This document shows positions 341-54,700 of a stretch of 64,000 nucleotides of DNA, piece after piece (the stretch's first letter is position 1; each line of letters starts with the position of its first letter). Both the position numbers and the translations under genes were made by a program. The stretch is from Asterochloris sp. CNOR1 (Eukaryota; Chlorophyta; Trebouxiophyceae; Trebouxiales; Trebouxiaceae), in the NCBI GenBank assembly GCA_963969365.1, contig OZ017759.1:2170001-2234000 (forward strand), in the 5' to 3' direction. The notes below the pieces were generated by a model, which did no database searches, was not told where the DNA came from, and saw only the letters and a program-made list of their open reading frames with translations.

Positions 341-3300
341 CTGGATGCGAGGGTTGACTTCCAGAAAGAAGTACTCGCCGTTCTTGTCCACCATGAACTC
401 TACTGTTCCAGCGTTCCTGTAGTCAACGTGCTTTGCCAGCTTGACAGCGTCTGCATGCAGCCGGGTCCTGACCTCAGGGTCCAGCCCATAGGCAGGCGCC
501 ATCTCCACCACCTGCAGAGCATTGCTGTTTGTTGTTGAGGGTGCAGCCAACAGGCATCTGGGGGCAGCTTGCCCTGCCGTCAGGCTCAAGCCAACCCTGA
601 TACCTGCAGGGCAGTGGACTACCATCAAATGTGCAGGCGGCAGATCTACGCCCTGATGTCAGGGCCCACCCCATAGGTAAGCTCAATCTCTACCACCTGC
701 AGAGCTGCGCCGCTATGCCCAAATGCCTTCCATTGGGTCTGTGTGCAGACTGGCCTGACCTCAGGGCCCCTAGGCAGGCGCCATCTCCACCACCTGCCTT
801 GAAGTGCTGCTTTGGGGCTGTGCAGCCACCAACTGTCAAGTGTTGGCTTCGTCTCTGGGAAAACGCCGCAGACGAACAGGTGCAATCCTAGACCCCTGCA
901 GAGCAATTGCAACAATGCAGCCGGCGGCATGGCTCTGGCCTCTGGGAGCACGCTATGGCATCTGAGTGCAGCACTTTGGCAGATGCATGTTATACGCCTG
1001 CAATGCAGCACCACCATATGCGCCCCTGTTTCTTCCCCACACCGCGAAGGAGGATGCATGCAGCCAGCAGGCCATGGCCCCTGATGTGGGCACTGTTACA
1101 ACGACTTGGCTGAGGTGGCTGCTGCCCGCACCTGCACAACAAGCAGCAGGCAGGCCCAGCCAGAACCCGTGCAAACACCTGCGGACCTGGTGACACTGCG
1201 AGTCTGCACGTCAAGCACCTAGATATGACAGCAGGAGGCTCTCTCACCATCTGGTGCTTTGTTGCACAGACTGGTGCAGCTGCTGCACACAGATCAGGCT
1301 GTTTAGACTCAAGCAGGCAGTCACAGTGCACACTCCAACATTTGCATGGCCTCCTCTGTTTGCTCGTGCTGGCCTGGAAGCAGGTAGTTTGCCATGTGCA
1401 AGGCGGTGCAGATCTGCACGGTGGTGCAAACTCTGCACTGTAGGACTGTCACCTTTTGGTGCCTCCGCTGCACAGAGCAGTCCCTCTCATAGAGGTGCAC
1501 CACATTGCCGTGGTGGTCTGCCAGGATCTGAACTTCAATGTGGCGAGGGTCTTCCACGTATCGCTCAATGAACATTCTGCAGGGAGCATGTGGAGACATG
1601 AGGAGCTCCGGCTGAAATCCCAGCACCTTGAGCCTGTTTGCGTCTGCACATGCTCTACAAGGCACTCAACCTGTGAAGGTGCCTGTTGAGCAGACAAAAG
1701 GCAACCTTCAAGCGCTGTCATGACAAGGTTGAGCACAAGCATTAGCAGCTGCAGGGAAGCGTTTGTGGGTGCAGTGTAGCACACCTCCTGATTGCTTTGT
1801 GCTTTATTGATTGCAGAGGACTGCCGAGGCGGGCATGCTGAGCATGAACATTACACGGTGACTTTGCTGGCATCGGCCGCACCACCTGGCACGCAGCAAA
1901 GCAGCCAGCAGATGTCCAGCTGGCACCACACCTATAACAGCATAATGTCTCCTGAGCACTAAATCTCCCAGATGCAGACTGGCACCATGCAAAGTGCAGC
2001 GTTGCAGCTGCACAACAAGCTTGAACTATCTCCACGACCAGGATGCAGAAGCCTTCAGCTGAGCATGCTTGTGTGGGCTTTGCGTGTCAGGCCAAGGGCT
2101 CTCCTGCAAAGATAGGCCCTGTGGCCCTGCCAGCGTCTGTCTCCTAGCAACAGTGCTATATTTGCTCATACTGGAGGCTGAAGCAGGCAGAGGGTCTCGC
2201 TCCTGTAGGCTGCTGCTAACCCCCATGCAACTGCTTCAGCAAGGAGTTGCCTGCCCCACAAGCAGGATGCAGAACCCTGCAGCTGGGGCTACCTGCCTGC
2301 CGTCTCCAAACGCAGCCTTCGCCTCGTTGCTGGCTCGGGTGAAGGACTCCTCCAGGTCCTGCTCTGCAGGTCAACGGGTAGGGCAACCTGACAACCATCA
2401 TGCTGTGCAAAGCGCATACATCAAAGCCTCTGCAAAACGGTCCTAGAGATGCTTGAGAACATTGTGTCTGAGGTGTGCGAACGGCAGTTTTGCGTGCATG
2501 ATGCTGGCTTGCGTGGATGACTCCCCAGCTTCTGCTTTGCATTTGCAGAGGCCAGGAGGGGCCTCAAGGCGTCACAAACCTTTTCTCTGCCTCGATCCGT
2601 TATGCTGCCACCTGCCACACTGTGTTCTACGGGCAGGTGTTGCAGACGAGTGGTGGCAGAGGCGGTGCTGGCTAAGCGACTTCCACCTCACAGCAAGCGT
2701 CACATGACCTTCCATACCTGACCTATGCACCACTGCAGGCCGTACAGCTGTCGCAATTTTCTCAGCAGCAACCACTGGGGACATATGGTGGTGGCGTCAC
2801 CTCGATGCACGACCCTCATGCCGCGCCCGCCGCCGCCCATGGCAGCCTTCAGAATCACAGGGAAGCCCGATTCCTTTGAGAAGGATCTGGCTGACTCCAC
2901 AGTGGTAAGTGCCTGATCTGTGCCTGGCACCACAGGCACCCCGCACTCCTCTGCCAACCGGCGGGCAGTGGTCTTATCACCCATTGCCTGCACAGGGGCA
3001 GCAGGCACGGTGGTCGGGGGCGGAAAGCATTCATCTGTGGAGCACGCAGCTGAGCACTGACAATTATTCTGGGATTGACAAGATGCATTGGCACCGACAT
3101 TGTTTCCCATCTCCTGCACGAGCGCAGGAATGCTCTGAGGGAAGTTGGACAGCTGCCAGCAGTCTCCTGTCACCTGCCGAGCGAAGAGCTTGTCACTAAT
3201 CGCCTGCACATGCGCGTCAGCGGACTGGCCAGGGGCTGTCTGGGGGCCTGTGGGTGCGCAGCACTGGAAATTGGAAGCAAGCACCCACTCTCATGTGATG

Positions 3301-6011: not shown

Positions 6012-9000
6012 CCAAGCCGCCGCGGCCAAAGCGGCGCTGTGCAGCGCGCCCTGGCACTCTCCCCAGCGGAGCCCACTATGTTGGCTATGTGGAGGATGGA
6101 GAGACCCCTGAGATGATCATGAAGAAGTTTGAGGAGCTGGATCGAGTGATGGCTGCTGGAAGCGGGCAGGGACCTCTGTCTGCGGGAGAGAAACCAGGTG
6201 AACCTCAGGAAGATTCAAGGAGCTGGACTGAGTGGTGGCTGCTGGCAGTGGGCAGAGGCCTCAGCCTGCCTTGAATTCATATCATTTGGTGACACATGCG
6301 ACTTATGACAACACCAGCACCAGCCCATGTCCTCAGACCTTCAAGGGGATGGGCAGGGGCCTTAGCCTGCAGGGAGGCACACTGGGTGAGGCTCAGGCAT
6401 CGTTGCAAAACAATTTGTTCTGTGGCAGAGTCTTGAGGGCATATGCGGATGTTAGTCGTGTAGGGGAGTCCCCACGTGTAGCTCAGAGGAAAGACTTGAG
6501 GGCTATGGATCATGCAGGACATCTGGAAGACAGGGAAACATACATGCGTAAAGCTGTGTACTGGCAATGCTCAAAGTAAGTAAGAAGAATCTTGAGGAGC
6601 TGGATCAAGTAATGGAGTTGCAACGGAACACATGCTGCAGAGCCATGGCTTGGCAAGCTGTACACAAGCAATTCTGAGGGCTTGAGCCTGCAGGGCAGAT
6701 GGTCTGGGGCCGCTGTGCTGGTAGCTTTCAGGGCAGCAACAAAAGTGCAGCGCCAGCAACCTGAGAAGCTGGAAGGAGGCTGTGCCTGCCGCTGAGCATA
6801 AAGGAGCTGCACAAGCTGCGTCCAGAGACGCCAGGCAGTCCCGGCACGCAAGCTTCACATGTGTGTCCTGGCGCCCACCAGGCCGCACTTGAGGAGCGGG
6901 GGTGCCAATGCAGCTGCAGAGGCCAGGCCGGCTGCAACAACAACGATCGGTTCCAGCCCCACTGGCTCTGCCCAGGACCCCTTGGACCACCCTCAACATG
7001 TGTCCTGATGTCTGGCAGGCTCAGGAGGGAGAAGTGGAGGCATCACTGAGCTGCAGCAGCCATGCTAGGTGTCAACGCGACCTGATGCAGCCACGCTGGC
7101 TGTGCCCACAGCACCCCTCTTGCGCACTGCATAGGCATCACCATGTGTCTCGCTGCCTGACAGGTCCTGGAGGGGGTGGAGGCGCTGGCGCAGCTGCAGA
7201 GGCTTTGCAGGCTGCAGCAGCGCAGATTCAGGCCTCAGCAGGTGACTCCCTGACTGAAGCGCAGCTCATGGAGGTGAGCTGTGGCTTCTCCTATCAAGTG
7301 CTCTACAGACCGTGTTGTCTTATAAACAGAGCCTCAGCAGCTGCGTCCTCGAGCTTGCAATCCAACCAGATTCTTCTCACGAATTACTGTATGTTTCTGG
7401 GAGCCCCTTAACCAGCCTAGCAACCTCAAAACAGAGTGTGGCAAGCAATTGGCTCGCCCCCGCAGGTGTTCCAATCCAAAACACATGACCCCTGTGAGGA
7501 GCACAACTAGAGCCTGTGCGCCTGCAGGTGTTCAAGCAGACCAGCATCTTCAATGTGAAGAGTGCCATGGCCAGCAACCATAATCTGGTGGAAGGGCCTG
7601 CAAGAGGTGGGGCAGAGCTGGTGCCCAGTGACGAAGAGCTGTCAGACAGCGAAGGGTGGCAGTACCTGAGGAGCTTCTGGTCAGGTGTGAAAGGGTCAGG
7701 CTTGCGCCAGAAGCTGCGTCTTGACCAGCCTGCCTCACTTGAGTGCTGAGAGGCTGCGGCCCGGCATTGATGAAGTTGAGGACAGCGAGGGGTGGAAGTA
7801 ACCTGAGAGGTCTTGTCAGGTGCAATGCTGTGAGGCTGCCATTGCACCAGCAGCTGTGCAGAGGACAGTGATGTGCACCCTTGCAGCTGTGAGGCCGGGC
7901 GGCACCATGCAGAACATGAACCACACACCCTCAGGAAGTTAGTGACTCGCTTTGATACAATGCATGGTGCTGCTATCGACCCGGGTGTGTGCCAGACTGC
8001 ATGTAAGCACGCTGCATATGATGACCAGTAACTTGCTGATGGTCATGTTGTGCTCCAGTCTGCTGCCTCGGCCACCCTCCACATTCCTGCTTTTCGCATT
8101 ACAGATGAGGATGAAGGTCCTGCCGACGAGCAGGACAAGCTGCTGGACACAGAGCCCAGCGCTGCAAAGCCTGCCATGCTCAAGCCTGCGAAGGCGGCTT
8201 TGAGGATTGCAGCCGCTGGAGGTGGGCATTCAGGTGCGCAGTGTCACCATGAGCACTGACAGCCGCCCTCTTGATTGATGCCGGCACCACGCGGACTCCC
8301 CCTTCCCCCACTTAGTGCTCAACACCACAGGTGGCAATGAGCTTCAGTTGACAGTTGGGTGTTTGGCAAGTGGGGTTCAGAACCTACTTCTTCACTGGCA
8401 GTGATCACATGTTGTATGATTAGGGGCCAACAATGTGCAGCTTGCTGTTGCACGCCAACACTGCATTGCAGTAAGGACGCTGATCAGCATGGCAGCTGCT
8501 GCAGGTGCACGGCGACGTGGGGCATACTCCAAGCACGGACGAGTCAGTGCTGCACAGCTAAGAGCCCTGGGCCAAGGCACGGTGGGCAGGCGGGTGAGTG
8601 AAGGCAACTGTGGCACCCAGCGGCTTGTAGCCCGGCAGTCGCAGAGGATACAGTGATAACATCGGTAACATCTGAAAGAAACAAGGGGTCGTGCTTTGGG
8701 TGCAGCCAGGCCTGGACACATAATGTATAGCCCATGCGTGCCTTTGCAGGCTGAACCCCCTCCTGTGGGTGCATGTGGCTTCAGGTGTTTATCTGAGGCA
8801 CCTTGAAGAACTCAGGGAGCTCTGCTTGCTCTTGTTGAACAGCAATTCAGCCTCACTGAGCTGGGCATGATGCACTCACCGGCTCTGCTGCTTACCTGCA
8901 CCGCTCCAGCCAAGATTGCCCTGGCCCCTGCTGCAGGTTCTGCCCTGCCGTTCCTGAAAGAACTTTGCCCAACAGTGCCTCCCCTGGTGCAGGTCCACGT

Positions 9001-11793: not shown

Positions 11794-11820
11794 ACAGAAA
11801 AGGTTGCAGCTCATGTGTGT

Positions 11821-16852: not shown

Positions 16853-19800
16853 TTACATGTCACCCCATGCCCATGGGTGCTCCTCTCGGTATGCCTCCAC
16901 TGCTGAGCGGAGAGCGTAGTTGGGAGTGACCTGCAGCACACATGCTGCAGCTCAGCAAGTGAGAACTGGATTTGCTTGTAAATGCATAGTTTCTGGAAGC
17001 CCCACCTGATTCTTGCTGCAATACTGCCGCGTGACCTGCAGCACAGCAAGCTTGGTCTGAGCAGCTTTCAGCCGGCACTTAGCGCACAGAGCACGCCTCA
17101 GGCTCTCTGCTCTGCCAACACAGTCACCCTGAGGCGCAACGCAACCAATGCATAGCTCACTGGGTCAAATTCGCCGTTCTTTTGAAGGTGCTGCAATAGC
17201 GCGGCCTTTTCATATGATAGACCTGCAGAATCAAGATGATGCTGAGGCAGACATCATGCTAGCCCATGGTCAATGCAGCATGCACTGTTCAACAGGCGCC
17301 TGGCAGCAAGAATGCACTTGGCACCAGCGCTCACCTGAAGGGGTGATGACAGGATCCCTGAAAGCATCCAGCGTCAGCTGCAGTGCAGGCAAGGACCAAC
17401 ATCAGCAGCAAGCAGCAACATGGCTGTGTGAAGGGGAGATCCTAGAGCTGCTACCTCTGAACGCCACCAAGCGTGCAGGGAAAGGTGCACGCAATGTGCG
17501 CCTGCCTCCCTGCCATGGGGCACCTGCCACAAGGTCTATGCAGCATGAGTGGGGTGCAAGTGCTGCAAGAGCATGCTGCAGGATGATTGTCACATATGCA
17601 GCGGTAACATGAGCAGTGGGGGGACATTGCCAGGCCCTGCTGTGCAGGTCTGCTGCTGCAAAACCTGTTATGCAGCAGGTATGCCTAGTAGGGCACACTG
17701 CAAGGACCCGCTGTGCAAATTTGTGCAGTTCAGACGTGAGATACGCTGTAGACAAGCCTTTTAGGTGCAGGCTGCAGGGTTCTGCAGCAAAGACCTGCTG
17801 CCAGAGCAGCTGCCATGCGCATGCAGCATGCATGGCACATGATGGCTGCCAGAACGGGCTGAAGGGGAGGCTGCACATGCCTGCTGCAGCTCAGACATGC
17901 AGCAAGCCTGGCACATGGCCACACCGCTGAGGAAGAGTCTGCACAGCAAGGGCCTAATGCAACACATGCATGCAGCAAGCATGACACGCAAAGGTGAAAC
18001 CTGCTCCATTTTCAAGCATGCCGTCAACCATGCCTGGCAGGTGAAGGCTGAGGGAATCTCGCCCTGCTTGAGATCCCTCCCTGCCAGCGCAAAGAGGTCT
18101 TCCAGCTGCCGCCGCTCCTCCTGCTGCCTCGTCTGGCACAGGGCCAAGTCGCTCTGCCAGGGCAACAAAACGTTTCGGTTGCACAGATTTCGTACAGTGG
18201 CTAGCCAGGCTGTGCAAAAAGGGTGCAGGCTCTCATGGCTGCCCTGCTGGATCTGGGGCAGGTCGATCTGCAGCAGGGCAAGGGGGCTGGCGTCTGCCAG
18301 ACCTGAAACCAGCACCAGCTTGCTGAGCTGCAAATTGAGAGGCTGGCAGCAAAGTTCCTGATCAGGGCTGATCAAAGCTTCCTATGCTACACAAGGGCAA
18401 GGTCAACATGCCCTGTGTAGCAGGCAAGGTCTTGCAGACTCAGGCGCATGCAGCCCGGCCCAGCAAGGGGCAAGCCCAGTGCTTGTGAGTTTGCTGTCAT
18501 GCTGCAGGTGAGACAAGCACATGCTGCAGCCTCCAAGGCCAGAGGTCTCCCGTCTCAACAATCCACGGGCAGTGCGTTATGCATGTCACCTGAGCCTATT
18601 GCAGCACTGCCCCCCATGGTGTGTGGCTGCTCAAGAGTAGTCAATTGCCACCAACCCCCGCCATATCACAAGGTGAGCCTGCTGTGTCATGAGCTGCAGA
18701 GGCACAGCAAGTCACCAAACCCCTGTCCGTTCTTGACCATGCAAAGTGGTCATGTGCTACATCACGAGCGGCAGGCGCTACTGGACCCCAGACTGCCCCT
18801 TCTCAACGTGGCCCCTGCCTCAGGCCAGCAGTCAGACGGCACATATCCAGAAGCGGCAAGGTGCCCCATGAAGCCAATGAGAAATAGACTCACCAGGCAT
18901 TGGGCAGTGCCCACCAGGTGTTCCTGAGTCACTGCATCATGTGCCTGCTGCGCACAGGGCAGAGATCCACGTGCTCCATCGAAATGTAAAGCACCCTATC
19001 TGACCTGCACCTCCAGGTGCCCACAGAATCTTCATTGGGGGGTCAAGCTCACCGGGCGCTGGGTTGCACCCCCCAGGTGCTCCTGCATCTCTGCGTCGTG
19101 CGCCTGCTGCATCATCTGCTGCAGGCGCTGCTGGAAGGCAGCCTGCCGGGAGTGCTTGTCCCTCGAGCGCCGCTCCCAGAGCCAGAACTTGGTGAGCGCC
19201 ATCTCGCGGTGCACCTCCTCCTTGATGCTGTCGTTCTGGTTGCGTGCCAACTGCAGGGCCTGCAGGACGCAGTGTGTGGGTATCAATGTGTGGGCTCTCA
19301 TGCGTGCTCACGTTGCTGCCAGACTGGTGTAGTGCAGCGGGAGGCCCTTCTAGGCCCTTCCAGGCCCTGCAGAAGCGCTGCACAGCAACACATCAATCTT
19401 TGGTGCACCTCCTCATTGATGTCTGTCTGACTTGTGGCAACTCCGAGGCCTGCAAGGCAGAATCCTACAGTTTGAAACCTGTAGTATTCGTGCTGCAGTA
19501 CTTGTGCAACCCAGCAGATGGCAGAGCACTTCTTCTGATGTTCGGTGCAAGTTGGTGGAAAAGGGTCGCCCAAGACAGCTGCAGGTATGACAAGTGAAGA
19601 CATGCTGTAGCATACATGTATGGCTGCAATATCAGGGTGCGTTCAGCAGGAAGGGCTGAACAGCACCTCTTTTTGGTTCTGTCAGAGCACAGCAGGAATT
19701 AGCTAGCGCAGCCAGGCCTGACAGGCTCCCAATGAGTGGCTGCATGTTGATGCACAGCATGAAACATGGCTGATGCCATTCAGCAGGAATGCAGGGTGAT

Positions 19801-31000: not shown

Positions 31001-34000
31001 TCACTTTGAGGCACATGCATCAGGTAGCCTCTGCCTGCATATGTGCTGCAGTCCTGACAGTGCTTGAATGGTGATTCGCTTCTGACTGCCCAGTTCACCT
31101 CCGTTGTGGTGCACCACAGACAGGCGCAGGTTGTCTCGCATGTTGCTATCCCGCAGCCTGTTCTCTGGCTGGATATCCAGGGCGGTGGCCACCTCTGCCT
31201 CTGTGGCCCGCGTGGCTGTTGCCGTGAGGGCCAGCACGCAGCGCGCCTGCACCTTCTGCTTCAGTAGGTGCCCCAACCGGAAGTAAGCTGACCTGCATGG
31301 CCCGGGGGGACACCAGCTGGCTTGTGAAACACTGGCTAGCAGCAACACCATCTCCAGGAATGGTGGCCCGTCAGTTTCTGGACTGCTGCAGAGGTCTCTG
31401 CAAAGAAGTGCACGCAGCCGCTAGCATTGGGGTCCTCCATCATAAGGTACTCTACCTAAAACAAGATGAGCAACGGCGATTTGATCTGGGGTGCAGCTGG
31501 TGCTAGGGCGGGCTAAATGCAGGCTGCAGGCGCATGCAACTCGCCTGAAGTTGTGGCCCCACTCTGCGACGCAGTGGGCCTCGTCAATGCACACCGCGCT
31601 GAGGGGCATGATCGGCTGCAGCGCCTGCAGGAGGGGCCAGCTGTGCAGGCGCTCGGGGGCCACGTAGAGCAGTCGCAGGCGGCCAGCCTGCATCGCAGGC
31701 AGACAGTGCTGCAGATGGGAGTGCGCAGCGCAGGGGACCATGCAGCAGGTGGGCCGCAGTCTGTCCCAGCAGGCAGGCAGCGCTCCAGGTGGACACACGC
31801 AGCGCAGTGGACGATCACAGCAGGAGTGCAACAGCCTGCACAGCAGGTAGGCAGCGCTCCAGGTGGGAACCTGCAGCGCAGTGTGCAATTGCAGCAGGTG
31901 GGCGGCAGCCTGGGTGGGGCGGCCTCCGGCAGGCACAGCATGGCTGCCAGCCTGCAGCAGCTGCCTTTGCCTGGGTGTAAGAGGGGAATGGCTCGCAGCA
32001 TTGGCTACTGTGCCCTAAGGCTCCTTCAGCAGGGTGGGCAGCTGATCAGAGGCACAGCCCGGATGAATTCATGAAGCAGGGCAGTGGGGCATAGTATGCA
32101 GGTTGCCACCAGAGGGATGCCCTGTCCCAAGGGACTGTCCAAAGCTGTTCACAAGAATGTGTGGGGATGATTACAGAGATTGCTCCTTGCCCCATTTGTC
32201 TTCTTTTTGCAACCTTGCCCTTTCGCTTGCACAGCACAGCATAGCCCTGTATACTTCATGGCCACATGCAGCAGACACAGCAGAGACTGCCAGCTTGCAC
32301 AACATGGCACCATTGCGCTGCTCACAGCATGAGATGGCGGCTGGTAGACGCATCAGCCAGCCGATGGTACAGCTGCCCAGCGCTGCAAAGACAGGCAACT
32401 CCAGAAACACAGCAAGCTGCCCTGTCTCCACACTGCACGCCATTCAGGCTCACCCGCAGGTCCCCAAGCACTTGCAGTGCCTCCTGCTTGCTCTGCCCAC
32501 CCCACAGCATCCCGGCGGGCAGCTGGGGGGGCAGCCTCTGCAGCTGATCCTGCATGAGGGCCAGAAGGGGGGACACCACCAGAGTGGTCCCACCAAGCAG
32601 CAAGGCTGGCATCTGGTAGCATAGAGACTTGCCCCAGCCTGCAAGCAGACAAAAAAGCTCAGTGACACAGCTGCCTTCGATGCCCCTTGCATCCAGATGA
32701 CTTCAATGGGCGATTCCCCCAAAGCAGCAGTGCGGCATTCGCCAGCACAGCAATTTGCCTGACTACAGCATGCTCAGCCACACAGGCGCAGCACACATAG
32801 AGTGCCGCCTCAGACAGCTCTGCCAGGGCAATGCCCCAATCTGCGTACAGCATAGTACCACAGCCACACACGTGGTCACATGTAGTACAGGATACAGCCT
32901 GCAGGCGGTCAGGCCATGTGAGGCATCCCAGACTATGCCACACGCTCCACTTCTGAGTCTCTCAAGGGACTGTTTGGATGCTGGTGGACCAGGCGAAGTC
33001 GGTCACTTTCTGGTGCAGACTGTTGCACAGCTCTATAATCCCTCAACAAGCCTCGACATCTGACAGAAGTGCCTTCCGCTCACAGGAGGATGCTCAGCAT
33101 GCCACGCCTTCAGGAAAGGGCCCACAAAAGCAGCATGGTGTGCTGATCCCCACCTGTTGGCAGGATGGCCAGGGTGGAAGTCCCCTGCAGAACGCGTCTG
33201 ACCACCTCCAGCTGCAGGCCGCGGAAGCCCTGGTGCCCAAACACCTCTCTCAGCACCTCTGCAGCCCTCTCATCTGACAGCTCGTCTAGGGGAGGGGCCA
33301 CGAACTCCTGCAGGCACAGGCCAACTGCTCTTGCTCTCTGCACCCGTCTACTTGGGCCTGCAGTCAGCGTCCTGGCTGCCCAGGGTGCCAGCCAGAGATG
33401 CTTGGGAGTCTTTGTCTGGCAGGTGCATGGCATACTGCCACATCGGCATGGGTAGGTTGGGCAGGCACCCCACAACTCATGTACGGTGCGCCATGTCTGC
33501 TTGCTGCTGCTTGAAGGCCTCACGTGCAAAGCCAGGGCTGGCAGGCCACACAAGCATTGGTGTGTTGACATAATGTCTATACAATGGCCTTGAGCCCTGA
33601 CACCTGCAGCATGTGGCATCAACCCACAGCCTTCTGAACTGACCTGCTCTGCCAGTGCTGGCTGGCTGCGCAAGCTTGCGGATGCGGGCCCTGCAGGCCC
33701 TTGGCGGGGAGCAATGCCTGGCACAGTACGCCCTGCCCCTTCATCATCGCTGTCGGCTGGCACTGCCTGTAGGCATGCACACGCTCTGTACCTTGTCAGG
33801 GAAAGCTCAACACTGTCATACCAGCTCAATCATGTCCGTCTGGGCTTCAGGGTTGTTGGTGTTGTAGATGGTCACCCATGCTGCTGTGCGGTGAGGTGCT
33901 TCATGCGGTGAGATCAAGGCGTCAATGGGCATACGCAGCCTACCAAGTGTCCTATGCCAGCAGGCATCTGGGTGAGACCGCACACTGGCTGTCTGTACAG

Positions 34001-38500: not shown

Positions 38501-39281
38501 CGAGTGCTCCGCCACTTCTTCAGCATGTCAGCTTAAGCAGAGGATGCTCAGCATGTCAGCAGGGCATTGGTGTCTCTGCGTGATCATGCATGTAGCTGCT
38601 GATGCAACGGGCACAGTAGCGCTCACCGATGTCTGGAGGGAGATCCGAGCTACTCGGTTGCCTGCCATTCTTGCTTCTCCACTCCAACATCCATGCCCTG
38701 ACGGGACTGGGAGGCAATCTCATGTGAATGTTTGGGCAAAATCTCAGGTAGGCCGAGGAAAGTGCCTTAGGTCAAGGTCAACACACATGCCACTGAACAG
38801 ACTTGCCTGATGCCAAGCCTGCAGCTTCAGCTGCATGCTGCTGTCAGCAAACCTCAATATCAATCTAAGACATAGCAGATCGCACACAGATCTTGCTGCC
38901 AGACCCTCGAAGGGCAGAGCCCTCATGCCCACTGTCGAGGTGCCTGAGGCGGACTCAGGAAAAGGGAGAGTGGTCAAGGTCAGCCAAAGAAGACAATTAG
39001 TGACACCAAGCCAAATGTGTGGTTGCTGAAGGGTACAGGCCTGATGCATTGGCTTGTAGTCAATGCTGCAGCGCCATGCACAAGGCATGGGGCCACTGCC
39101 AGCTTGGACTTCTGTGCCACAGCATAAAACTTCAGCGCCGCCTCAGCCGAGTGCAGCCAATCCAGCGGGTGTGCCAGCGTTCTGCTTTTGGGCACACACA
39201 GGCTGTTCACAGCCTGAGATATTGCTGTCTACCCAGGGGCAATCACTCAGCACCCCACAGACAAGCACTGGATCTCTGCAG

Positions 39282-42200
39282 GTGTCCTACTCACGGGATG
39301 ACATCCGCATCGCTGCTCCCAACGTGAGCCTGGACACCCTCCCAGGGCCCCACAAGCCAGACTGCCTGCTGTTTTATCACCCTGACACTGCGGAGCTGGC
39401 CCAGCGTGTGGCAGCCGCCAGCCCTAACATCCAGCTGGGAGAAGTCAAATGGGCGTAAGTGTAGCAGGGCTGCTTATCATGAGCGCTGCATGCTCACGGG
39501 ATGCTTCTATCAACCAGCTGAGCAGAAATTGGGAGGCACACTGCTGCCCAGACGGCCAAGCGGTGCTGTGCAAATCCATGGCAGGACGCAGGCTGCCACC
39601 ATTGGTCTTGAAGATACTTTGGAGGCGCCTGCTGTGCAACACCTGTGACATGGGTGTACCTGCCAGCCTGGCAAACAGCTCGTCATCTCATGAGGCCAGT
39701 GAGCAAGTCGCCTGGGCATGCCTGCAGGTCAAAGCCTGCTCGTGTCTTCACGAACTGTACAGTCAGGGTCCTCTCAGATCTTGCCAGCCACTCCAGCGCT
39801 TGACAAACAGATTGGGGATGCCGACTGGAACTCTACTGCACTGGCAAAAGGCCACACAATAAGTGGCACATCAAGAGCACATCCTGCCTGCAGGAGCTTT
39901 GCAGACGGCTTCCCCAACCTGTTTGTCAAGGATGCCACCAAGATCCGCAACAGGCATGTGGCCTTCCTGGCCTCCTTCCAGCACCCAGTGTCCATCTTTG
40001 AGCAGCTGTCCATCATCTACCAGCTGCCGCGCATGTTTGTGGGCAGCTTCACCCTGGTGCTGCCCTACTTCCCAACCGGCACAGCTGAGCGGGTAAGCCA
40101 GCGCTTTGGGACAGATTTGTGCATGACATTCTTGGGTACTTGCGTGTCTCCCAAAAGGGTGAACCGTGCCCTCTGGGTCCACGGCTGGGTGAGCTGGTGA
40201 GTACTTTTGGTTGTGCTGCCAGCCTCCGGTTCTGCAAAGGCAGCAACATCTGTGGCTAACACTCTGTTCCCTGCCTGTCCACTGGCGCCGCAAAGAGTTT
40301 GAGTGTGTGGCGTGCCAGCTTGCAGGGGAGCCTGTCAGTGGGCAGCTTCAGCCTCGTCGTGTCTGGGTTCTTTGCCACTGGCACAGCAGAAGGACTGAGA
40401 AGCATCTGTCCTGCCGCACATCTGACCGGCTTCACTCTGCGGCTTCCCGAGTGCCTGTCTGTGGCCACTGCCTGCAATTATTGTCTCCAGATAAGTTGTC
40501 ATCCTGCGTCTGCTGCAGGTGCCCTGCAGGTGCAAACTGAAGTACTTGTGGCCGCTGCATTTGCTTCAGACCTTGAGCAGCCACTCATATATGGTGTGCT
40601 GCGCCAGTGTGTGGACAGCAGACCCTGCTCCTCATGTGGAGGTGTAAGCTGGGGGAGTTGTGGCCGCTGCCTGCAACTGTTGTGAGTGTGTTGCTAGCCC
40701 TCAAACGCCCACTGCCCTGTAGGTGGAGGCTGAGGGAGATGTGGCCACTGCCTTCACGCTGGCACGCATCCTGTCCAACGTGCCCCTCTCTCGGGGTGGC
40801 CCCACCAGCGTCGTCATCTTTGACATCCATGCGCTTCAGGTAGGCAGGCCCCTCGCCATACAGCTGAGCTGAGCTCCTGCCCTGATCGGCACTTGGTGTG
40901 CAAGGATTCAGGGGGCATGCTGCAACACAGGGCAGTTATAATGGTGCCTCATGGGATACTCTCAGGGCAGCAGGCTGCAGGATGTAGGCTCAAAGTTTGC
41001 AGCTTAAGGTGGTTGCACCCCCAGCCTCCAGACTATGAATGGCAGCGACCAGGCCTGAAGGCTGCAGGTTCATTTGGTGCCATGCTGCACATGTATCCAG
41101 CACATGCGCTTTGAAAGGGCAAGTTGATGCAGGGAAACTTAAGCTGTGCAGCATCCTGACCAGCATCAATTTGCAGTTGAAATACTAAACCTGAAAGGGG
41201 GCCACGGCCTGCAGCATGCAGGCTGGGCTATGCACAGCAGCGGCATCAGCCTTATGCAGGGCCTTTGAAATGTTTCAGTTCCACATGACTGGGTGCAAAC
41301 ATGCCAGGTCCAGGTCCAGGTCTTGCTTCCTGTGCTCAATGAGGTGGTGGCCTGCCTTCAGGTCATGTGCGTGGCCTGATCTCAGCTCTCTGTGATGCGG
41401 GACCAGGTCCCGTTGGGGTCACTGCACTGCCGCGTGCAATGCATTCAGCATGCTCCCTGGTGTAAGAGTGGTCCCCCTTGACCACACATAGCCGCAGCTG
41501 CAAGGTTGGCGCACTTTCACCCACTGCATGTTTCCTGCTGCAGAAGCACCTTATCTTGGAAGCACAGCACTGTTGCCATTCAAGAGTGGCTCAATGAAAG
41601 TGTGCTGCCTGCTGCAGAATGATTCTATTTGGAGGACTCGGTGCTCCTGCTGTCACAATGTGTGGCCCTGAGATCTGGATAGAAATGTGTGCTGCCTGCT
41701 GCACAGAACTCTCTACTGTGACAACATAATGCCGCTGCTGCCAGAGAGCGGGTGAACAGATTCTATGCTGCTGAGACAGCTGTGTGCTGTCTGCTGCAGG
41801 AGCGCTTCTACTTTGGTGACACGGTGCTGCCACTGTTTGAGAGTGGGATCCCCTTGGTGCGGGAGCGCTTAGAGCGTTTACAAGACGCTGACAACATCAC
41901 GATTGCCTACCCTGATGAGGGCGCCTGGAAGCGGTTCCACTACCAGTTTGGAGACTACCCAGAGGTGGGCAGGGCTGGGAGTTTCCTTGCACGCCAGCAG
42001 TTGAGGGTTTGTTGTGGCCTGACCAGTGCGTCGACCTTTGCCCCTTGGGTGGCAGTCATGCCTGTTTGAGGGGTCCCTGGTACCTGTTATGCCACTCAGT
42101 TGGTGTCAGGCCAGGCCCAGCGTAGAAGGGCTGTCGTTCTGAGGCCACTGCATGCTGGCAACATTTCAGACATGGGCGCATCAGATTGTACCAGCAAATG

Positions 42201-45250: not shown

Positions 45251-45660
45251 TCATGCTGGCATGCTGTGTGCTGACGTTGCTGCACCTGCCGTTGCAGCCA
45301 TTGAGCCGACGTCTGCCTCCTGGGTGGCCCCAGTCGGCACTGAGCAGCAGGGTGGCATAGCATGTCATGCTGTCTGTCTGCTGACACCCCTGCATGCTGA
45401 AGTGACTGAGCATGCCTGCTGCAGCTATCAAGCAGCGTCCCCAGCATGCTGAGCAATGGCCCCACCCAAAGCTCCAACAACATGCAGCAGCTGAGATGCG
45501 CTGCAGAGGATGCCCATGCTGGCCTGCCGTGTGCTGAAGGCGACACGTGCTACTTCCTGCAGCCAGTAAGCAGCGACACAATCGCAGCCTCATGAACAAG
45601 TAGAACCCATGGCGCTCAAGGATGCCGGCAGCTGAGAATGCACAGCAGCTCCCATGCTGG
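45251..45660 (+). repeat. Three to four copies of an acceptor-exon junction, period about 120-140 bp
   Basis: Copies start near 45251, 45391 and 45511, and the functional one at 45653. Each has CATGCTGGC or a variant, then a CTGCTGCAG- or CCTGCAG-type acceptor, then a sequence like CCATCGAGCAGCG. The copy at 45511-45572 matches the functional junction at 45653-45718 over more than 60 bp with indels. Confidence 0.82.
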
Positions 45661-45701
45661 CCTCCCCTGTGTTTGACATTGACGCGTGCTGCCTCCTGCA
45701 G

Positions 45702-48700
45702 CCATCGAGCAGCGGCGCGACTACTGCCTCCTGAGCGAGCGGCCCCCCCGGCCGTCCAGCGCATCCGGAGGTCGGCGCTCGCGGTCCAGCTGGGCCCCCG
45801 GCAGCTTCACACCTCCACAGTCTAGGACGGGCAGTCAGTCGGGGATGCCTGGCGGGCTGCAGCCTGAGCCGAGCGAGCTCAGCCGGGCCAGCCGGGGCAG
45901 CCGGGGCAGCAGGGCCAGCCACAGCAGCGTGCTTGAACCATACAGGCAGGTCTTGCAGCTGCACACCGTCTTGGAACAGCATGGACCCGATTGTCCTGCT
46001 CCTGCACACTGTCATCGCGCAGTGTTGTCCCCACCTGTTCCACTTGCACATTGTCTGATCGCAGTGTAGTGCCCATGTCTTGCACCTGCGTGCTGTCTTC
46101 GGGAAAGGGCTGCCTCTGTTCTGCTCGCATCTGGGGCAGGCCTCTCCAGCGTGTTGACAGTGCTGCACATGATTGGCTGCTGCACAGGCCTGGAGACTCA
46201 TCTTGCGTCTGCATGCGGGGCTAACCAGCACACGCCACTGCGCTGTCTCTCCTACATCTTCAAAGAAGCTTTGTCAACTCTGTTCTGTAGCCCTGCAGGG
46301 AAGATGAGCAGTCCATCCGGATTGATGTCGATGCAGCGGAGGAGCCTGAGAGAGCAGGCCCTCCACCAACAGCCCAGGGCGCAGCTGCACCTGCACAGGC
46401 TGGCAGCGCAGCTGCTGATCTGGAGGGGGGCCCGCCTCCAGCTGAGCAGCCGGCAGCGGAGGTGCAGGGGCCTGCCCATGACGGCCGGCTGGATGCAGAC
46501 CAGGCCCAGCTGAGCGGCATGGCTGGGGATCATGCTCAGCAGAACGGCGCGTCTGGCGAGCATGCACACCTCAATGGTTCAGCAGAGCCAGCCCCGCCAG
46601 AGCCCAACGAGAAGCGTGCAGCTGCAGCTGCAGTTGCCCATGGACTGCCCAAGCACCTCATGCCGCAGCACCTCATGCACACAGACTCCCTGGTGCGCAC
46701 CTGCGGCAGGCATTAGGCTTTAGGGTTTAGGCCTTGGGGCCCCCAGGCACTGCAATGCCGGGGGCACTCCTGTTGCTTGCAGCAAGCTGCCTGTGCCAGG
46801 CACACCGAGTTGCAACACATGTTGGCCTTGCTAATGAAGCCCTCGTTGCAGCATTCTTGTAGCTTTGGGCTTGCTTTGCAGCCTTCTCGCGGCTTAGGCT
46901 CTGTATCGCACTTCTTTGCAGCAAGGACCAAGTCTGGCCATGCAGCTGATGTCATGGCGTGGTCCCACTGAGGGAGTGCACCTGTACCAGCAACTGTGTG
47001 CAAGGTATTGCTGATGTTCATCAAGGATGTGACGGCTGTATGGCTGACATGCTGGGCTATGGTGTGTACGTCTGAAACCCGATGCAGCCTCTGCAAGGTG
47101 CATATGCCCTGACACTGCTGCTGTGCACTGCAGAGTTCCCTGACCTCTGTGGACACTATGGCAACCAGCAGCGCAGACATGCAGAGCGGCAAGGAGACGC
47201 ACTATGAACCCAAGCATGATGTCATTCTGAGGTTGGCATGCCAAATGCGGTTGTCGCACTGCTTGGCTCCTGAGTTCACAGGCTGCTTTTGGGTGACAGC
47301 CTGCAGCCTCGTGCAGAAAGGAAAGGGGTTGATTGATCCTTAGATGTGCGCATCATGACACGCCTCAATGTAAAGGACCACCCTGTCATGAGGAGGCCAT
47401 GTGAGACAGACCGGCCATGGGAGGTTGTCACCCCGTGGCTGCAAGGGATGTGCCTCTGCCAGCTGCACGCAACGCATCCCCGCTAGCTGGCGGCATGTGA
47501 CAGCTGCGCGTCGGCGTGTCAGCTCCCTCAGAAGCAGCTGCCACCGTAGTTCAGAATCGACAAGGCAGCTGGCTTGTGCTATCTTGCTATACACATCTGC
47601 TGCAGTGCAGTACCTACCTGATGAGCATGAGGCCAGCTGCTGTGCTCCCCCCTCACATGCTGACAAGGCCTGCAGGCTGCAGTGACCATTCTGAAACTGG
47701 AGCGGGGTGCTATTTTCAGCTTGCAGTCTTGCAAAGTGCCAACATCTATTGCTGTGCCCCCTGCAGGCTGGAGTACATCGGGACCTCGGAGATGAAGTAC
47801 TGCCTCATGATCCTGTACACAGCAACCCTGTTTGGCACAGTGGCCCTGCTGATCGAGTTTTCCATCAAGGTCACTCAGGTGTGTACGCTCGGCATCCCGC
47901 TTTCGAGCAGTGATGCTCTGTGCTGCCGCGTTCCCACTGTTGAGCAGCGTTACTGCTGTGATGCCGTACTCCTCAGGACGCTCGTTGCTCAGAGGTGCAC
48001 CTTTCCCTGTCAGGTCATTGCCTGCTGTGGGTGCCGGCTGCGTCACTGACCCTGCAGGGCAAGTGGGCCTTCTGCTGACAACTGCAGGATGGGTATGGCC
48101 ATGAGCTGTCTGACACCAGCCAGTATCGAGCCAATGTGGCAATGGGCTCCATCATGTGGCTGCTCATCACCAGCAACCTGTGCCAACTGGGTTGGCGCAT
48201 CAGTCGGGTGGTTGCCCTCAAGAAGCGCTGGAGGAGAAGGCGGTTAATTGCCTGCTCTCTCTCCTTTGCGGAGTTGGGCATCCAGTGGGTGAGTTAAGTG
48301 TTTGCCGATGTGTTTGGGACGCATGCCTCAATCTGCTGTGAAAGAGGCTGTCAGCGGGCGCATGCCAGCGTGCTCTGTCTTGTCTAAACAGTTCAGTGAG
48401 TGTCTCAGTCAATGCATTTACTTTGTTGACTGAGTTCCTGAACCATAAGGTGCTGCTGGTGCATGACTTGGTGCATGATGGAGGTCTGTCTGGGTGGCAA
48501 AGTGCCTCAGGGTTTCGCCGACATTGGAAGCACCTGCCTGTGCGGGAACACGCCAAAAGTGCTTGCTGTGAGAGCAGTCCAGGACGCCCTGCCTCTAAGT
48601 GGCTTGTCAAAGTTGGAAAAATGCACAGAGTGCATTGCAGTGCCGATTGCTCACTGCAGCTCAATATCTTGTCCTCTCTGTCCCCAGTGGCATGTGCTTG

Positions 48701-51700
48701 CTGTGCATGCACTGAATGATGACATGTTGCTGCAGATCAATGTCTCATTCTTCATTGTGCCCAACGCTTACGTCTTGTACAACCACTGCGGCGTCTTTGC
48801 TGAACTAGTGGCTGTCAGTGGCATCATTCGATGGACCTGCTGGAATACAGTGAGAGCTTGAGTTGCCCTGCTAAAGCATCAGCTGAGCGAACATTCATTG
48901 CCTGCGACTGTGTCCTGCAGCTGCCCTGCTGCAGCCCCAGCGAGACACAGACTGCACTCCCTACTGCCATGCATCTGCTTGTCCCAGACTGACGTGGTGC
49001 ATGCTGCAGCTGCTTTCTTGAAAGCACATTGAAGTGACAGGGACCCTGCCTCCGTGCATCTGCCTTCTCTAGGGGCTGCGTTCATGTGCTGTTCAGGTCC
49101 CCTGCTTTTTGTTTGCTGCCAGGGCAACTGCATGCCTCTGGGCCGCTTTTGTTCCTGATAGCCTCCTGCTCGCCAGGACTTGCGCTTCTTGCTGCCAGCA
49201 GCAGCAGCTGAACACCGGTTGCTTCCTTGCCCACAGATCTTCATGCTCTTCTGCATTTTGGTGCATAACTCGATGCCGTGGAAGAGGGGCGCCGCCAGTA
49301 GCAGCTTCAAAAGTGGGCTGGTGGGTGACAAAATGCCCTCCCTGGGAAAGGTGAGCCTAAGCACTTTTTTCTTAGCGGCTGCACTTATGCTTTGGCTCTA
49401 TGTGGCTGCCCTTCACACAAAGATGCCAACAGAGGCCAAAAGCAGTTTCTGGTCAGCAGCTCAAGCTTTGCTGTTCTTTTATTCTGGGACGGAATGAGCG
49501 TGCCCACTGCCATGTCTACCCTTCTACATGGCCGCTTCAGGCTGTGAGCAGGAACTACTGCACAGACGACGCCGCTCTGACAGGGCTTGCACAAGGGAGC
49601 CAATTTAGGAGGGAGCCCCCCGCACAACTTGTCCTGCCTTTGCAGGACAATGCACACAGGCTCTTCAATGTGGCCACCCAGGCTCAGCCTGGCACTGACC
49701 TGATAGTGATGGATGCTCCCTGGCTGAGTCTCATCTGCTTTCACTGGCCTAAGTATGCGCTCTGGCTAGCAATTGAGGGCATCCTTGTTGGCGTCATCGT
49801 CGTGTACAACAGGGCAGGTGGGCCATTCTTGATTTGAATGTCTCGACAAGCAGTGCAAACTGTCTGTCTGTTCACCATGCAAGCCTCAATCGTGACGCCC
49901 TTGTGTCAATTGTGATCGAAGCTGACGGCGGCTGCGTGGGCGCTGCAGCGGATGCTTTCAGGGGCATGCAACTTGCGCATTTGCAGCAGTGCTTGTCTAC
50001 CTGTTGAGTCTGGAGGTAGTTTGAAGGGCGCTGCAGCTGATGTCCTGAAGGTTGCTATGTAAGTTGCCTTTCTGCCATAGCTTCTCATTCTGAGTGTCTG
50101 GCAAGCTGTGGCATTGTGCGGCCTGGCAGCATTGCTCACCCTGGACGGAAGTCCAGGCGGCTGCTCATGCTCTGCACAGTCTCATACTCTCCTGAATGTC
50201 GCAAGGGACCGGCTGCAGGTGGCATGCACAGGGGTGGGGTTTGCAAAGCCACACCTGCTTGCGCACTCTGCCACGTTGGCAGGACAGGCAGCAGAGCTGG
50301 CGCTGTGGCTGCAGGGTACACCGGCGTCGATCGGCTGCACCCAAGGCGCCAGTGCGACCTGGGGACATATGCCTGCCGGCAGAGCAAAACTCTGTATGGC
50401 TTAGTAATAGGGGTGAGCCCATGCAGCTCTTGAGAGGCCTTGTGAGCAAGGATTCAATCTGCTGCCCAGCAAGTGAAGGGTACCACAATGGGCAGAGCTC
50501 AGCTTGCAGCCCCTATCTGCTTGATGGTGTTGCCCCTCCTGCTTGAGAGCTTCAAGGAAAGTTTTGGAGTCTGTGTGCAAAGTGATGAATGGCTTACTGT
50601 GTCTGCAGGTTGTGGTTGGTTGCTTCGCATACTTCTTCTTGTATGTCTACTTGACTGCCAAGGTCGCGAAACGTCTTCAACAAAAGTCCTACACTGGTGA
50701 GGCAAAGCACTTCTACCCAGCGCCAGTCTGCATGGGTCTCTGTGGCGAGCAGCAACATGAGGCCCGCCTGGCAGATTGCAAGGTTTCACGGCTGCCTTTG
50801 CAGCTGTACATGTCTGCTAAGCAATGTGACTTATGGGCGGGACCACACTCATCATACTACAAGCTGGCTTGTTCTCTGCAGACTACAAGATCTCTAATCT
50901 GGTGGTGCGCCTTCAGGTGGGCTGATGCTTGCCTGACATGACTGCATGGTATACCCTGTCGCTTGCTGTGGAGCATCTGCATGCCATGCAGCTGCTGCGT
51001 GCTGAGCTGAGAGCTCGTGCGGCATGGGTGGGCTGCCCCCAAACTGAACCCCTGCTCTATCTACTTCTAGCACGGCTTGGCTGCCCCCAGCCTGCTTTGT
51101 TCAGGCCCACGCATCTCAGGCGGTGGCTGCTTGCCAGCCGCATGCTGTTGTGTTGGAAACAAAACGTAGCCCCTTCGTGATGCGCGGTGCATGTGGGCTC
51201 CCTGAGTGCGAGCCCAGTGGCCATTGTTGCTTGCCAGGTGACTGATCCTGCAGGCCCCTCTGCTGCAGTCTCGTGCACGCATCAGCGTCCTTCTGTTCTG
51301 CATGGTGTCCATGGTGGCTCTCTGGTGGATTTTCCCGTACAGCTGCATCACCTACCAGCAGAGCTGGCTGGGCTTCCTGCCGCTCCAGGTGGGCTTTTAG
51401 ATGTGTTGAGGCTGCATGTCCAGCAGTGTTTTAAACATCCACCATCTGGCACTCATTGGCCACATGGGGCCTGCACAGTCACGGTGGTCATCAGCAGAGC
51501 TGAGCAGGGCTGTTTGCCCTTCCAGGGGCGCTGCTAGCTGTTACAGGCAGCCCTGCTTTCCAGGAGGTCTTGGTCAACAATGACGTCTGCACAGCTGAGG
51601 CGCCTGTCAAGTGGCTAGGGGCCACCTTCAACCTGTCTGCATGCAAGGTTTCATCTGTTTGCTGGATCACCTACCAGGTGCTGACACACCTACCAGGTGC

Positions 51701-54700
51701 TGACACGTCAGCCGCTTCAGCTGGGCTGCTGCACGATAGAGGGCCGTCTGCAATCCCTGCCGCGCGCATGTCCCTGCTCGTTCTGTGTCATGCTGGCTGC
51801 AGCGCAAGGCAGCTGCGCTGGCTGAGTCTGGGCAGGCAGACTTACTGGATCAACAGCACGTCTGGGTTCTCCCTATCATGATGATGGCAAGCACAGCATG
51901 AAAGCTGACAGCTGAACTTCTGTTCGTGCAGGTTGTCATGACAGCCTGTACACTGGTGTGGTCCTATGTCGCCATGCCGATCAACCCCGCCCATCGGACG
52001 CCAGTGCTCTCGGTGAGAGTGCCTGCTCACAACAAACCTGCATGGTGCTGATAGTGTGTGGGGCCAGCCTGTGCGACCTGGAATTCTACTGGAGTCATTA
52101 AATTGTGGCATGACTGAAGATCACGGTCACCACCATGGTCGTGGGGACTACTGGACTCACAGTGACAAAGGTCCATACACAGCCAGCCAGATGCCCCCGC
52201 TCCAAGCTTGTTTTGTGAACTCTATCCAGCCCGTAGCATTCAGTGTCCTTGACCAGTGGCATGCAGAGGGAAGTATTGACCCTGCTCTGCTTGGTCTTGC
52301 TGCTGGTTCCCTGGTGTCAGCACTGATGTTGCTCCAGCTTCAGCTCCAGCATTGCATCCAGACCATGGCCTGCAGCTGTTGTATGGTCTGTTGGCAGAGC
52401 ATGGGCCATAATCTGGTGTTGCTACACGCTTGCTGCAGCTTGCGGCAATGTCACAGTCCACTTCTCCGATGCGGGGTCTTGCAGCTTCAGATACTGTCTG
52501 CCTCATCTCATGCTCTGCCTTGTGTTTGCAGCTGGCTCCAGATGTCTGCCTGGCCAGCATTTGGTATGGTATGCACAGCAACCAAGGGTGCACAGGTCCG
52601 TTCCTTATGACTTTGCTTGGGCTCAGTGCTGATCTAGCTTCGCCTGTCTGTCCCCACAGCATAAATGCTCTTTGCATGCCTTTAGAGCATGGCTCTTCTT
52701 GGTCTCACAAGGTCGCTGTTACCTGTGCAGACCTGGCTCCAGGAGTTTGCCTGGACAGAGCGTGAGAAACCTGAGAAGGTGGCAGTCAGGAACCAGACGC
52801 TGCACGGCAATGCCACGCTCGTGCAGGAGCCCATGTTCTGTTTCGAGACCACGCTCAAGCTCTTCTATTGGACCGCCCTCGTCTATGATCACAAAGAGGT
52901 GGGCGGGCCTGGGCTCTGCGATGAAATGGGATGGCAGCACAGGTGCTGCTGTTGCAGCCCAGCAATGTGCTACATGTCCATAATGGCCTCTGCTCTGGAT
53001 CAACTTAGGTCAAGCCTGCCTGCTTCATGGAGCGCTCTGCCTCAACTGTACAAGTTAGGTTGGTATGTGCTGTGGCGTGCATGAGTTATCGTGGCGCTAT
53101 GCTGCTTCAATGTGTTCGGTGTGTGGGCCCGTGTCAGCCGTGCTGACAGAGTGCACAGCCCTGTCGCATTTGGCTGCAGGCCAGGTACAGTATACAAGTG
53201 AACAGCACACCTTGCTCATGTCAGAGGTGACATAGGCTGCTGAGTATTGCAATCGGCCCCTGCATGCACAGCACAGCACAGCACAGCATGCAGCTGCAAG
53301 CAAAGTGCAGCCACAGCACCTGCCTGCGGTTGCCTTGTCCCATCAGATCAGTGTGCGCACAGCTTGAAGGCAACTTCTTGCGACTCTTCACACCGGTCAC
53401 TGTTCTCTGTGCAGGCTGTCTTTTCCCTGCAAGCTGATTGCACCTATCTATCAGTACAGATCTGGCGCATTGCAAAGAAGTACTCTATGTCCACTGCAGC
53501 AAGCTGTCTCACTCTTGACTGCTTCTTCAGGTTGACAGTACGCAAGGTGTTTTCTTCTGCTTTGAAACGTTGCGCTGCCCCCAGAAGCTCGAGCGCACAC
53601 CTTCACATTGACCATTGACCACACGCATGACCCACATTGTCAAGGGTGCTCGCACCCCTCTGCAGGCTGAGCGCACCCACCTCACTGTGGAGCAGGGCCA
53701 CAAGCACTACAACACACACAGCCACGAGCTGTTCTGGGAGCACCTGCACGACACCAAGTGCCTGATGGCCTGGGGGGATGATGCCGTCGTGCTGGCCTTC
53801 CGGGGGACCGCCTCAATGGCCAATGCCAAGGCAGACCTGCAGGTGGGGCACAAGGTGCTGGAGGGGTCGCATGGGGAGTTGCTTGCAGGGGCAGACGGTG
53901 CGCTGTCCATGAGGAGAAATGAAGCTGTACTGGCCTTCAGGGGGGCGGCCTGGATGGCCAACGCCAATGCAGACCTTCAGGTGGGGCACAAGGTGCTTGG
54001 GAGGTTGCCTTGGGAGTTGCTTACAGATGGTGTGCTGCCCATCAGGGGGCGCTGCCCTCAATGGCCTATGCCGAGGCCGACCTGCAGGTGCGCCAGGCAG
54101 ACACCATGGGCAGGCTGTCTTCTGTGGGCCAGCCTGCTGGCGCCGCATCATGATGCTGTCCTTCTGGGAGACTGCTTCCATGATCAAACCCAGGGCAGAC
54201 CTGCAGATGGGGTAAACACGGTGCTTAGGATATTGCGTGAGAGGTTGCTTGATGACGTGCTGCCCCTTCTGAGGCACTGCCCTCAATGGCTGATGCCAGG
54301 CCCACCTGCAGGTTCCCGGCTGCGACATGCTGCTGACAGTCTGTCTGATTGGTGGCAGGCCTGGCGAGCCCCCCATCCACCGGTGCGCGGGGAGTGGTGG
54401 AAGATGACTCGCCCCCTGGTGCACATGGGCTTCCTCAAGAGCTGGGTCGCCGGTGGGCTGGGCGCAAAGGTGGTGCAGCGCGTGAAGGAGCTGGTGGACA
54501 CCGGCTGCAAGGCTGGGGTGCCCGTCAAAATCTATGTGACAGGTGGGTCACCTCTGTCTGGCAGCCAAGAAAGGACTGGAAATTCAGCAGGCTGTTGCAC
54601 TGCAGGAATTGCCAGCGGCTTTGCCGGTGGGCTCTGGCTGCTGCCATCCTGTAAGAAGCAATCATGACCTGGCGCAGCACGTGCACAGTACTGCCCAACC

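What the first reader, a model, noticed from the sequence alone, without database searches (positions are those of the whole stretch)
640..54325. Introns filled with degenerate copies of neighbouring exon-intron junctions ('junction echoes')
At least seven genes on both strands show the same rule. Copies of an exon's 5' end, with its CTGCAG acceptor, lie upstream of the exon. Copies of its 3' end, with its donor, lie downstream. Copies number one to four, are spaced about 70-140 bp apart and decay with stops and indels, while the real exon stays intact. This points to an ongoing local tandem-duplication process centred on splice junctions, which would lengthen introns and supply decoy or alternative exons. 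I know of no named element class with this behaviour.
Basis: partly seen in the sequence, partly recalled or inferred. Interest (0 to 1): 0.9.

Follow-up and report, generated by a model that had tools for sequence, protein, structure and literature searches.

The report
Decayed tandem copies of exon ends
Many introns of this probable green alga hold old, decayed head-to-tail copies of the neighbouring exon's end, a real pattern that ordinary short tandem duplication outside the protected coding sequence can explain without any new element.

Summary
In 239 predicted internal exons (window plus 24 other 10-kb loci), the acceptor region matches the exon's own upstream intron in 24 cases (0.8 expected from other introns) and its downstream intron in 1; the donor region matches the downstream intron in 25 (0.1 expected) and the upstream one in 1; exon middles match 1 and 0 times. 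Window and other loci agree.

The copies are local tandem duplicates and go with longer introns. But intron interiors hold such duplicates too, and the left/right rule is what any tandem duplication overlapping one exon end must give if the exon stays whole. A hand-set simulation with random placement and a quiet recent period comes close to the observed frequencies and profile. Copies are old: 1 of 73 is at least 85% identical, against 'ongoing'. Frameshifting indels and splice dinucleotides kept at near-neutral levels speak against maintained alternative exons; RNA was not available. Codon-position differences support shared ancestry. Limits: one genome, self-made gene models, post-hoc simulation.

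The parts
341..511 (-). source exon (biotin carboxylase gene); its acceptor end faces higher coordinates
   Evidence: gene finder; Pfam PF02786 and PF00289 on the joined protein
652..705 (-). echo of 467-520 (exon 5' end and acceptor), 83% identical
744..831 (-). echo of 456-552, 77% identical
   Evidence: also found by the whole-genome search
877..910 (-). weak echo of 493-525, score 18
2480..2541 (-). echo of the acceptor end of exon 2293-2363, 73% identical
3149..3236 (-). echo of the acceptor end of exon 2801-2987, 66% identical
7781..7837 (+). echo of the donor end of exon 7528-7684, 78% identical
18859..18951 (-). echo of the donor end of exon 19053-19259 (TPR/U-box gene), 71% identical
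   Evidence: Pfam PF04564
19402..19454 (-). echo of the acceptor end of exon 19053-19259, 77% identical
31733..31997 (-). three echoes (31733-31806, 31820-31880, 31892-31997) of the acceptor end of exon 31563-31687 (helicase gene)
   Evidence: TRF period 74; Pfam PF00270/PF00271
34701..34935 (-). three echoes (34701-34792, 34794-34875, 34887-34935) of the acceptor end of exon 34517-34646, successive offsets 91-101 bp
40333..40390 (+). echo of the donor end of exon 39894-40092 (ribose-phosphate pyrophosphokinase-like gene), 73% identical
   Evidence: Pfam PF13793
40520..40675 (+). two echoes (40520-40561, 40637-40675) of the acceptor end of exon 40723-40839
41524..41752 (+). three echoes (41524-41589, 41600-41653, 41686-41752) of the acceptor end of exon 41800-41964, successive offsets 74-95 bp
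45256..45620 (+). three echoes (45256-45322, 45387-45466, 45519-45620) of the acceptor end of exon 45702-45949, successive offsets 124-139 bp
53666..53842 (+). source exon (class 3 lipase gene), donor CAG|GTGGGG at 53843; the gene finder ran it on to 53980 through the first echo
   Evidence: Pfam PF01764 on the joined protein; exon end placed by eye (inference)
53910..54313 (+). four echoes (53910-54026, 54032-54095, 54154-54251, 54256-54313) of parts of 53771-53888, the exon 3' end with its donor
62515..62846 (.). 165-bp tandem pair, 84% matches, not tied to a listed junction: the same kind of duplication without one

Best explanation
During a past period this genome gained many short head-to-tail tandem duplications (roughly 50-200 bp), placed without strong preference for splice junctions. 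Those inside introns left intron-intron pairs. Where a duplication overlapped one exon end, the whole exon continues only from the inner copy, so the extra copy of an exon's start lies upstream and the extra copy of its end lies downstream. Purifying selection would have removed duplications inside exons or of whole exons. The extra copies then decayed as ordinary intron sequence. They look junction-centred because the exon side of such a pair changes little, so these pairs stay recognisable longer than intron-intron pairs. Shown: local direct similarity, the orientation rule, shared ancestry, age, duplicates in intron interiors, and that an untargeted model comes close to the data. Inferred: the removal of other duplications by selection, the decline in rate, the longer lifetime of exon-anchored pairs, and the molecular origin (end-joining repair of staggered breaks, or replication slippage).
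For: Orientation and controls; exon-only 70-nt queries reach score 18 on the rule side 51 times and on the wrong side 4 times. Interior intron excess of 2.5-6.1% against 0.3-0.9% at score 15, 8-10% at the junction, near background by 80-100 nt into the exon. One simulated setting (mean unit 90, rate 0.016, quiet time 0.18) gives junction hits 13.7% (real 15.3%, chance 8 of 478) and interior pairs 0.57 per intron (real 0.60, chance 0.04), with a peak at the junction and a dip near -40 as in the data. Third codon positions differ 1.21, 1.33 and 1.41 times as often as positions 1 and 2 at score 16, 18 and 22 (bootstrap for 18: 1.17-1.52), against 0.88-0.89 in chance alignments at score 14 and 16. 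Arrays at fairly regular spacing. Introns with echoes are longer.
Against: The simulation was changed after a first, constant-rate version failed: it put interiors near or above the junction level. Its settings were chosen by hand (3, 5, 18) and not formally fitted. The real signal falls faster inside the exon than in the close run (2.2-2.6% vs 6.2% at 60 nt). Real junction copies are less identical than simulated ones, perhaps because real third positions evolve. Interior pairs at or above 85% identity are commoner than in that run (0.042 vs 0.016 per intron). The acceptor motif is kept better than its flanks (0.83 vs 0.72; simulations 0.76-0.80 vs 0.75-0.76), which the abundance of TGCAG or some use of the copies might explain. 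Breakpoints are too worn to test repair signatures.
Confidence: 0.8

Rival explanations
1. A process aimed at splice junctions (for example breaks linked to transcription or to exon-edge chromatin) duplicates exon ends preferentially and is still active.
For: The junction signal is about twice the interior signal, and it falls off inside the exon faster than in the close simulated run.
Against: An untargeted model gives a similar ratio. Very few young copies.
Confidence: 0.1
2. The copies are ancient or current alternative exons (tandem exon duplication), kept for splicing diversity.
For: Many copies keep AG (30 of 44), some keep GT (17 of 39), and the acceptor motif is kept better than its flanks.
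Against: AG and GT retention do not differ from neutral simulations (Fisher p 0.24 and 0.15); 6 of 111 indels in exon-derived parts are multiples of three; exon middles show no copies beyond chance.
Confidence: 0.05
3. New introns arose by tandem duplication of an AGGT-bearing exon stretch (Rogers model), leaving exon-like sequence in introns on the same sides.
For: Predicts exon-like sequence on the same sides (model as described in passages of PMC4974935).
Against: Donor and acceptor regions of the same intron are not alike: 0 of 177 at score 18, and 1.1% against 1.6% in the control at score 14. Echo centres lie nearer the source junction (median 0.67 of the way from the far end, n=58, nearest 60 nt not searched).
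Confidence: 0.04
4. Chance resemblance from the TGCAG-rich composition, or an assembly artefact.
For: TGCAG is 8.7 per kb in introns against 1.1 expected from base composition, and other-locus controls exceed shuffles.
Against: Other introns and the wrong side of the same exon share that composition yet give about one hit or fewer in 239 at score 18. Copies mostly differ by 20-35%, unlike recent assembly duplicates. The codon-position asymmetry is absent from chance alignments.
Confidence: 0.01

Closest known systems
Short tandem duplications from repair of breaks with 3' protrusions (PMC8355091: abstract and section list seen) and plant 'patch-mediated' tandem duplications (Vaughn and Bennetzen: recalled; only show that other papers hold phrases of its title)
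   Same: Direct, local, head-to-tail duplications, frequent in the human genome according to that abstract
   Different: Here seen as an old, decayed layer in introns; endpoints and microhomology not measurable
Potato RdRp intron gain by a tandem duplication that carried parts of an existing intron/exon structure (PMC4974935: abstract and passages seen)
   Same: A tandem duplication carrying putative branch site, polypyrimidine tract, 3' splice site and exon sequence
   Different: There it made a new intron; here the extra junctions show no sign of being kept and lie inside an existing intron, in many genes
Intron gain by tandem duplication in Drosophila (PMC2891723: passages seen)
   Same: Tandem duplication changes exon-intron structure
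   Different: There coding stretches with a proto-splice site; here exon ends with existing splice sites
Minisatellite/VNTR arrays (recalled)
   Same: Two to five head-to-tail units at fairly regular spacing
   Different: Units overlap exon ends; arrays are mostly old (65-80% identity); polymorphism not testable
Introners (PMC9860276: listing with start of abstract seen)
   Same: Large effect on introns
   Different: Introners insert copies of themselves into many genes; the three echo arrays searched in the whole genome match only their own locus

Membership tests
Local tandem duplication / decayed minisatellite | Direct orientation, short spacing, rare distant copies | tested here: met
   three arrays match only their own locus in the genome
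Local tandem duplication / decayed minisatellite | Head-to-tail units at regular spacing | tested here: inconclusive
   seen in the six clearest arrays; over 58 echoes the alignment, limited to a 60|60 query, is a median 0.5 of the spacing
Local tandem duplication / decayed minisatellite | Near-identical units (typical of active minisatellites) | tested here: not met
   1 of 16 TRF arrays of period 40 or more has over 90% matches; copy-number polymorphism was not testable. So: decayed, not active
End-joining tandem duplication (patch-mediated / fill-in) | Microhomology or blunt junction at the breakpoint | not testable with these tools
   copies too diverged
Intron gain by AGGT tandem duplication | Donor and acceptor regions of one intron are duplicates of each other | tested here: not met
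   0 of 177 at score 18
Introners | Similar sequence dispersed across many genes | tested here: not met
   three echo arrays searched in the whole genome gave only their own place and, for two of three, their own exon; the search scores few candidates and missed the third array's own exon, so weak dispersed copies could escape. Far pairs in the window are rare
Tandem alternative exons | Whole exon copied with frame kept | tested here: not met
   exon middles at chance level; 6 of 111 indels are multiples of three
Tandem alternative exons | Copies used in mRNA | not testable with these tools
   no RNA data

The most novel reading that the evidence does not exclude
Short tandem duplication was once far more active in this algal lineage and became a leading source of intron length, with a mild real preference for exon ends (for example at transcription-linked breaks) hidden beneath the selection and detection effects; introns would then be a dated record of that era.
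Probability: 0.12. Interest if true: 0.7.

Novelty: new variant of a known kind. Interest (0 to 1): 0.42.

Why it matters
A large set of exon-anchored tandem duplicates with known direction gives a near-neutral clock inside genes: the exon shows the starting state of the copy. It offers many natural introns in which the spliceosome must choose one junction among two to five similar ones, and shows how a plain mutational process can look like a targeted one. It also warns gene annotators: the model built here read the first lipase echo as coding.

Tried and rejected
Constant-rate duplication: too many young pairs and interiors too strong. Hypermutation of repeats (RIP-like): the exon-to-copy spectrum looks ordinary, Ts/Tv 0.87, insertions 57 and deletions 54. 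Copies born degenerate by error-prone synthesis: would give about equal differences at all codon positions; the ratio is 1.33, so this cannot be the whole story. AGGT intron gain: no signal. TGCAG excess as a residue of acceptor echoes: it is roughly strand-symmetric (TGCAG 6.57 and CTGCA 7.37 per kb in intron interiors), so more likely composition. Unfiltered pair counts gave a weaker orientation (acceptors 123 upstream, 67 downstream; donors 70 and 96), probably because they include coding repeats and overlaps of whole exons. The identity histogram is invalid for overlapping pairs (the 173 entries at or above 95% are mostly a stretch re-aligned to itself) and was replaced. Eight literature searches listed, in the rows shown, no paper that describes this pattern; only an open-licence library was searched and long lists were cut.

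Rows dropped: of 635 predicted exons, 239 were used (junction part; except the 177-intron test); left out were exons with coding score under 8, under 60 nt, with a neighbouring intron under 100 nt, or at the end of a gene model. Introns between two used exons count twice in the interior figures. One search used looser limits (score 5, 45 nt). The gene finder often merges neighbouring genes, so its 'introns' include some intergenic DNA.
Full report
What was examined. The window is G000:C14:2170001-2234000 of a 56.38-Mb genome in 21 contigs. Genome size, GC of 53-61% and intron density resemble the lichen alga Asterochloris glomerata (56 Mb, GC 56-62% over 98% of the genome, nine introns per gene, mitochondrion 110,932 bases; passages of PMC6652019), and contig C20 is 110,056 bases long. 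The name is an inference. I fetched 24 further 10-kb loci at fixed positions on 18 contigs, making 304 kb with the window.

Gene models. A two-strand hidden Markov gene finder, seeded with peptides read in the window, was run in nine training passes. It gave 635 exons, a CAG|GTGAG donor and a CTGCAG|G acceptor. It tends to merge neighbouring genes. Of seven joined proteins sent to Pfam, five matched: biotin carboxylase, TPR/U-box, DEAD and Helicase_C (RecQ-like, a recalled name), phosphoribosyltransferase with the pyrophosphokinase N-terminal domain, and class 3 lipase; two had no match.

Is it real? Local direct similarity is far above background, with no inverted counterpart beyond 25 bp. 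The sharpest test used 239 internal exons: 60-nt junction segments against the two neighbouring introns, with other exons' introns as control. At score 18 the acceptor matched the upstream intron 24 times (0.8 expected) and the downstream one once; the donor matched the downstream intron 25 times (0.1 expected) and the upstream one once; exon middles matched 1 and 0 times. Purely exonic 70-nt queries hit the rule side 51 times and the wrong side 4 times. The window and the other 24 loci show it separately, and 18 of 25 sequences hold at least one such exon, 23 on each strand. With looser limits 30 of 125 window junctions have copies, and 17 of 125 a wrong-side match.

Is it centred on junctions? 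A scan of 40-nt queries shows excess inside introns too (2.5-6.1% against 0.3-0.9% at score 15), 8-10% at the junction and 20 nt into the exon, and near background by 80-100 nt into the exon. For a tandem duplication that overlaps one exon end, the exon continues only from the inner copy; the extra acceptor copy must lie upstream and the extra donor copy downstream. Orientation therefore does not show targeting. A simulation of random placement with conserved exons tested the amplitude. At constant rate it failed: interiors were near or above junction level, and 11 of 33 junction copies were at or above 85% identity, against 1 of 73 in reality. After a quiet recent period was added, one of 18 hand-set combinations (mean unit 90, rate 0.016, quiet 0.18 substitutions per site) gave 13.7% junction hits and 0.57 interior pairs per intron, against 15.3% and 0.60 observed, with chance levels of 8 of 478 and 0.04; one of five gave 14.5% and 0.63. 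The close run also gave the dip near -40 and a peak at the junction, though a slower fall inside the exon than observed (6.2% against 2.2-2.6% at 60 nt). The fit is post hoc and informal. It shows that strong targeting is not needed; it does not exclude a mild preference.

Age and ancestry. Junction copies are mostly 65-80% identical, 1 of 73 at or above 85%. Differences from the exon are 1.33 times more frequent at third codon positions (bootstrap 1.17-1.52; 59 alignments at score 18; 1.21 at score 16 and 1.41 at score 22), while chance alignments to other introns give 0.88-0.89 at score 14 and 16. The exon thus seems to have kept its frame and collected mainly third-position changes since the duplication. 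Indels in the copies are mostly one or two bases, 6 of 111 multiples of three. AG is intact in 30 of 44 spanning acceptor copies and GT in 17 of 39 donor copies, not distinguishable from neutral simulations, although the acceptor motif as a whole is kept better than its flanks (0.83 against 0.72; simulations 0.76-0.80 against 0.75-0.76). On balance the copies do not look maintained; RNA would be needed to say so firmly.

Consequence. Introns with an acceptor-side copy have a median of 515 nt against 280 without, donor side 467 against 302; longer introns also offer more target, so this is an association. About 23% of predicted intron bases and 29% of predicted exon bases lie in local pairs of score 22 or more; the other-locus control gave 47 pairs against 375. 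The exon figure includes coding repeats and exon ends copied into introns.

Place among known things. Short tandem duplication is a known mutation type (PMC8355091, abstract). A tandem duplication carrying an existing intron/exon structure is described in potato, where it created a new intron (PMC4974935, abstract and passages), and tandem duplication is one proposed source of new introns in Drosophila (PMC2891723, passages). The AGGT form was tested and not found here: 0 of 177 introns. Dispersed introner-like copies were sought for three arrays in the whole genome; the matches were the array itself and, for two of three, its own exon. What I did not find described in the rows listed by my eight searches is a genome-wide layer of decayed, junction-overlapping duplicates.

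Noticed in passing
introns and exons of the window and fetched loci: TGCAG is several-fold over-represented in introns (8.7 per kb vs 1.1 from base composition) and frequent in exons (5.5 per kb); in intron interiors TGCAG and CTGCA are about equally common; cause unknown.
   Followed up: partly
L016: GC 52%, lowest of the fetched loci, and the only sequence with a TRF array of period 40 or more above 90% matches (58-bp unit, 7030-7155): perhaps a different kind of region with younger duplications.
   Followed up: no
L012:5081-7904 and L022:4149-6484: Kilobase-long stretches that align to themselves at several short offsets (listed), as if built from tandem arrays.
   Followed up: no
window 62515-62846: 165-bp tandem pair with 84% matches, the longest unit TRF found in the window.
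   Followed up: no
window 51668-51706 and 62455-62499: Exact 19-bp and 21-bp tandem repeats (100% matches): short units can be young here while long ones rarely are.
   Followed up: no
window 16857-21030, minus strand: A TPR plus U-box gene (Pfam), resembling CHIP-type ubiquitin ligases (name recalled).
   Followed up: no
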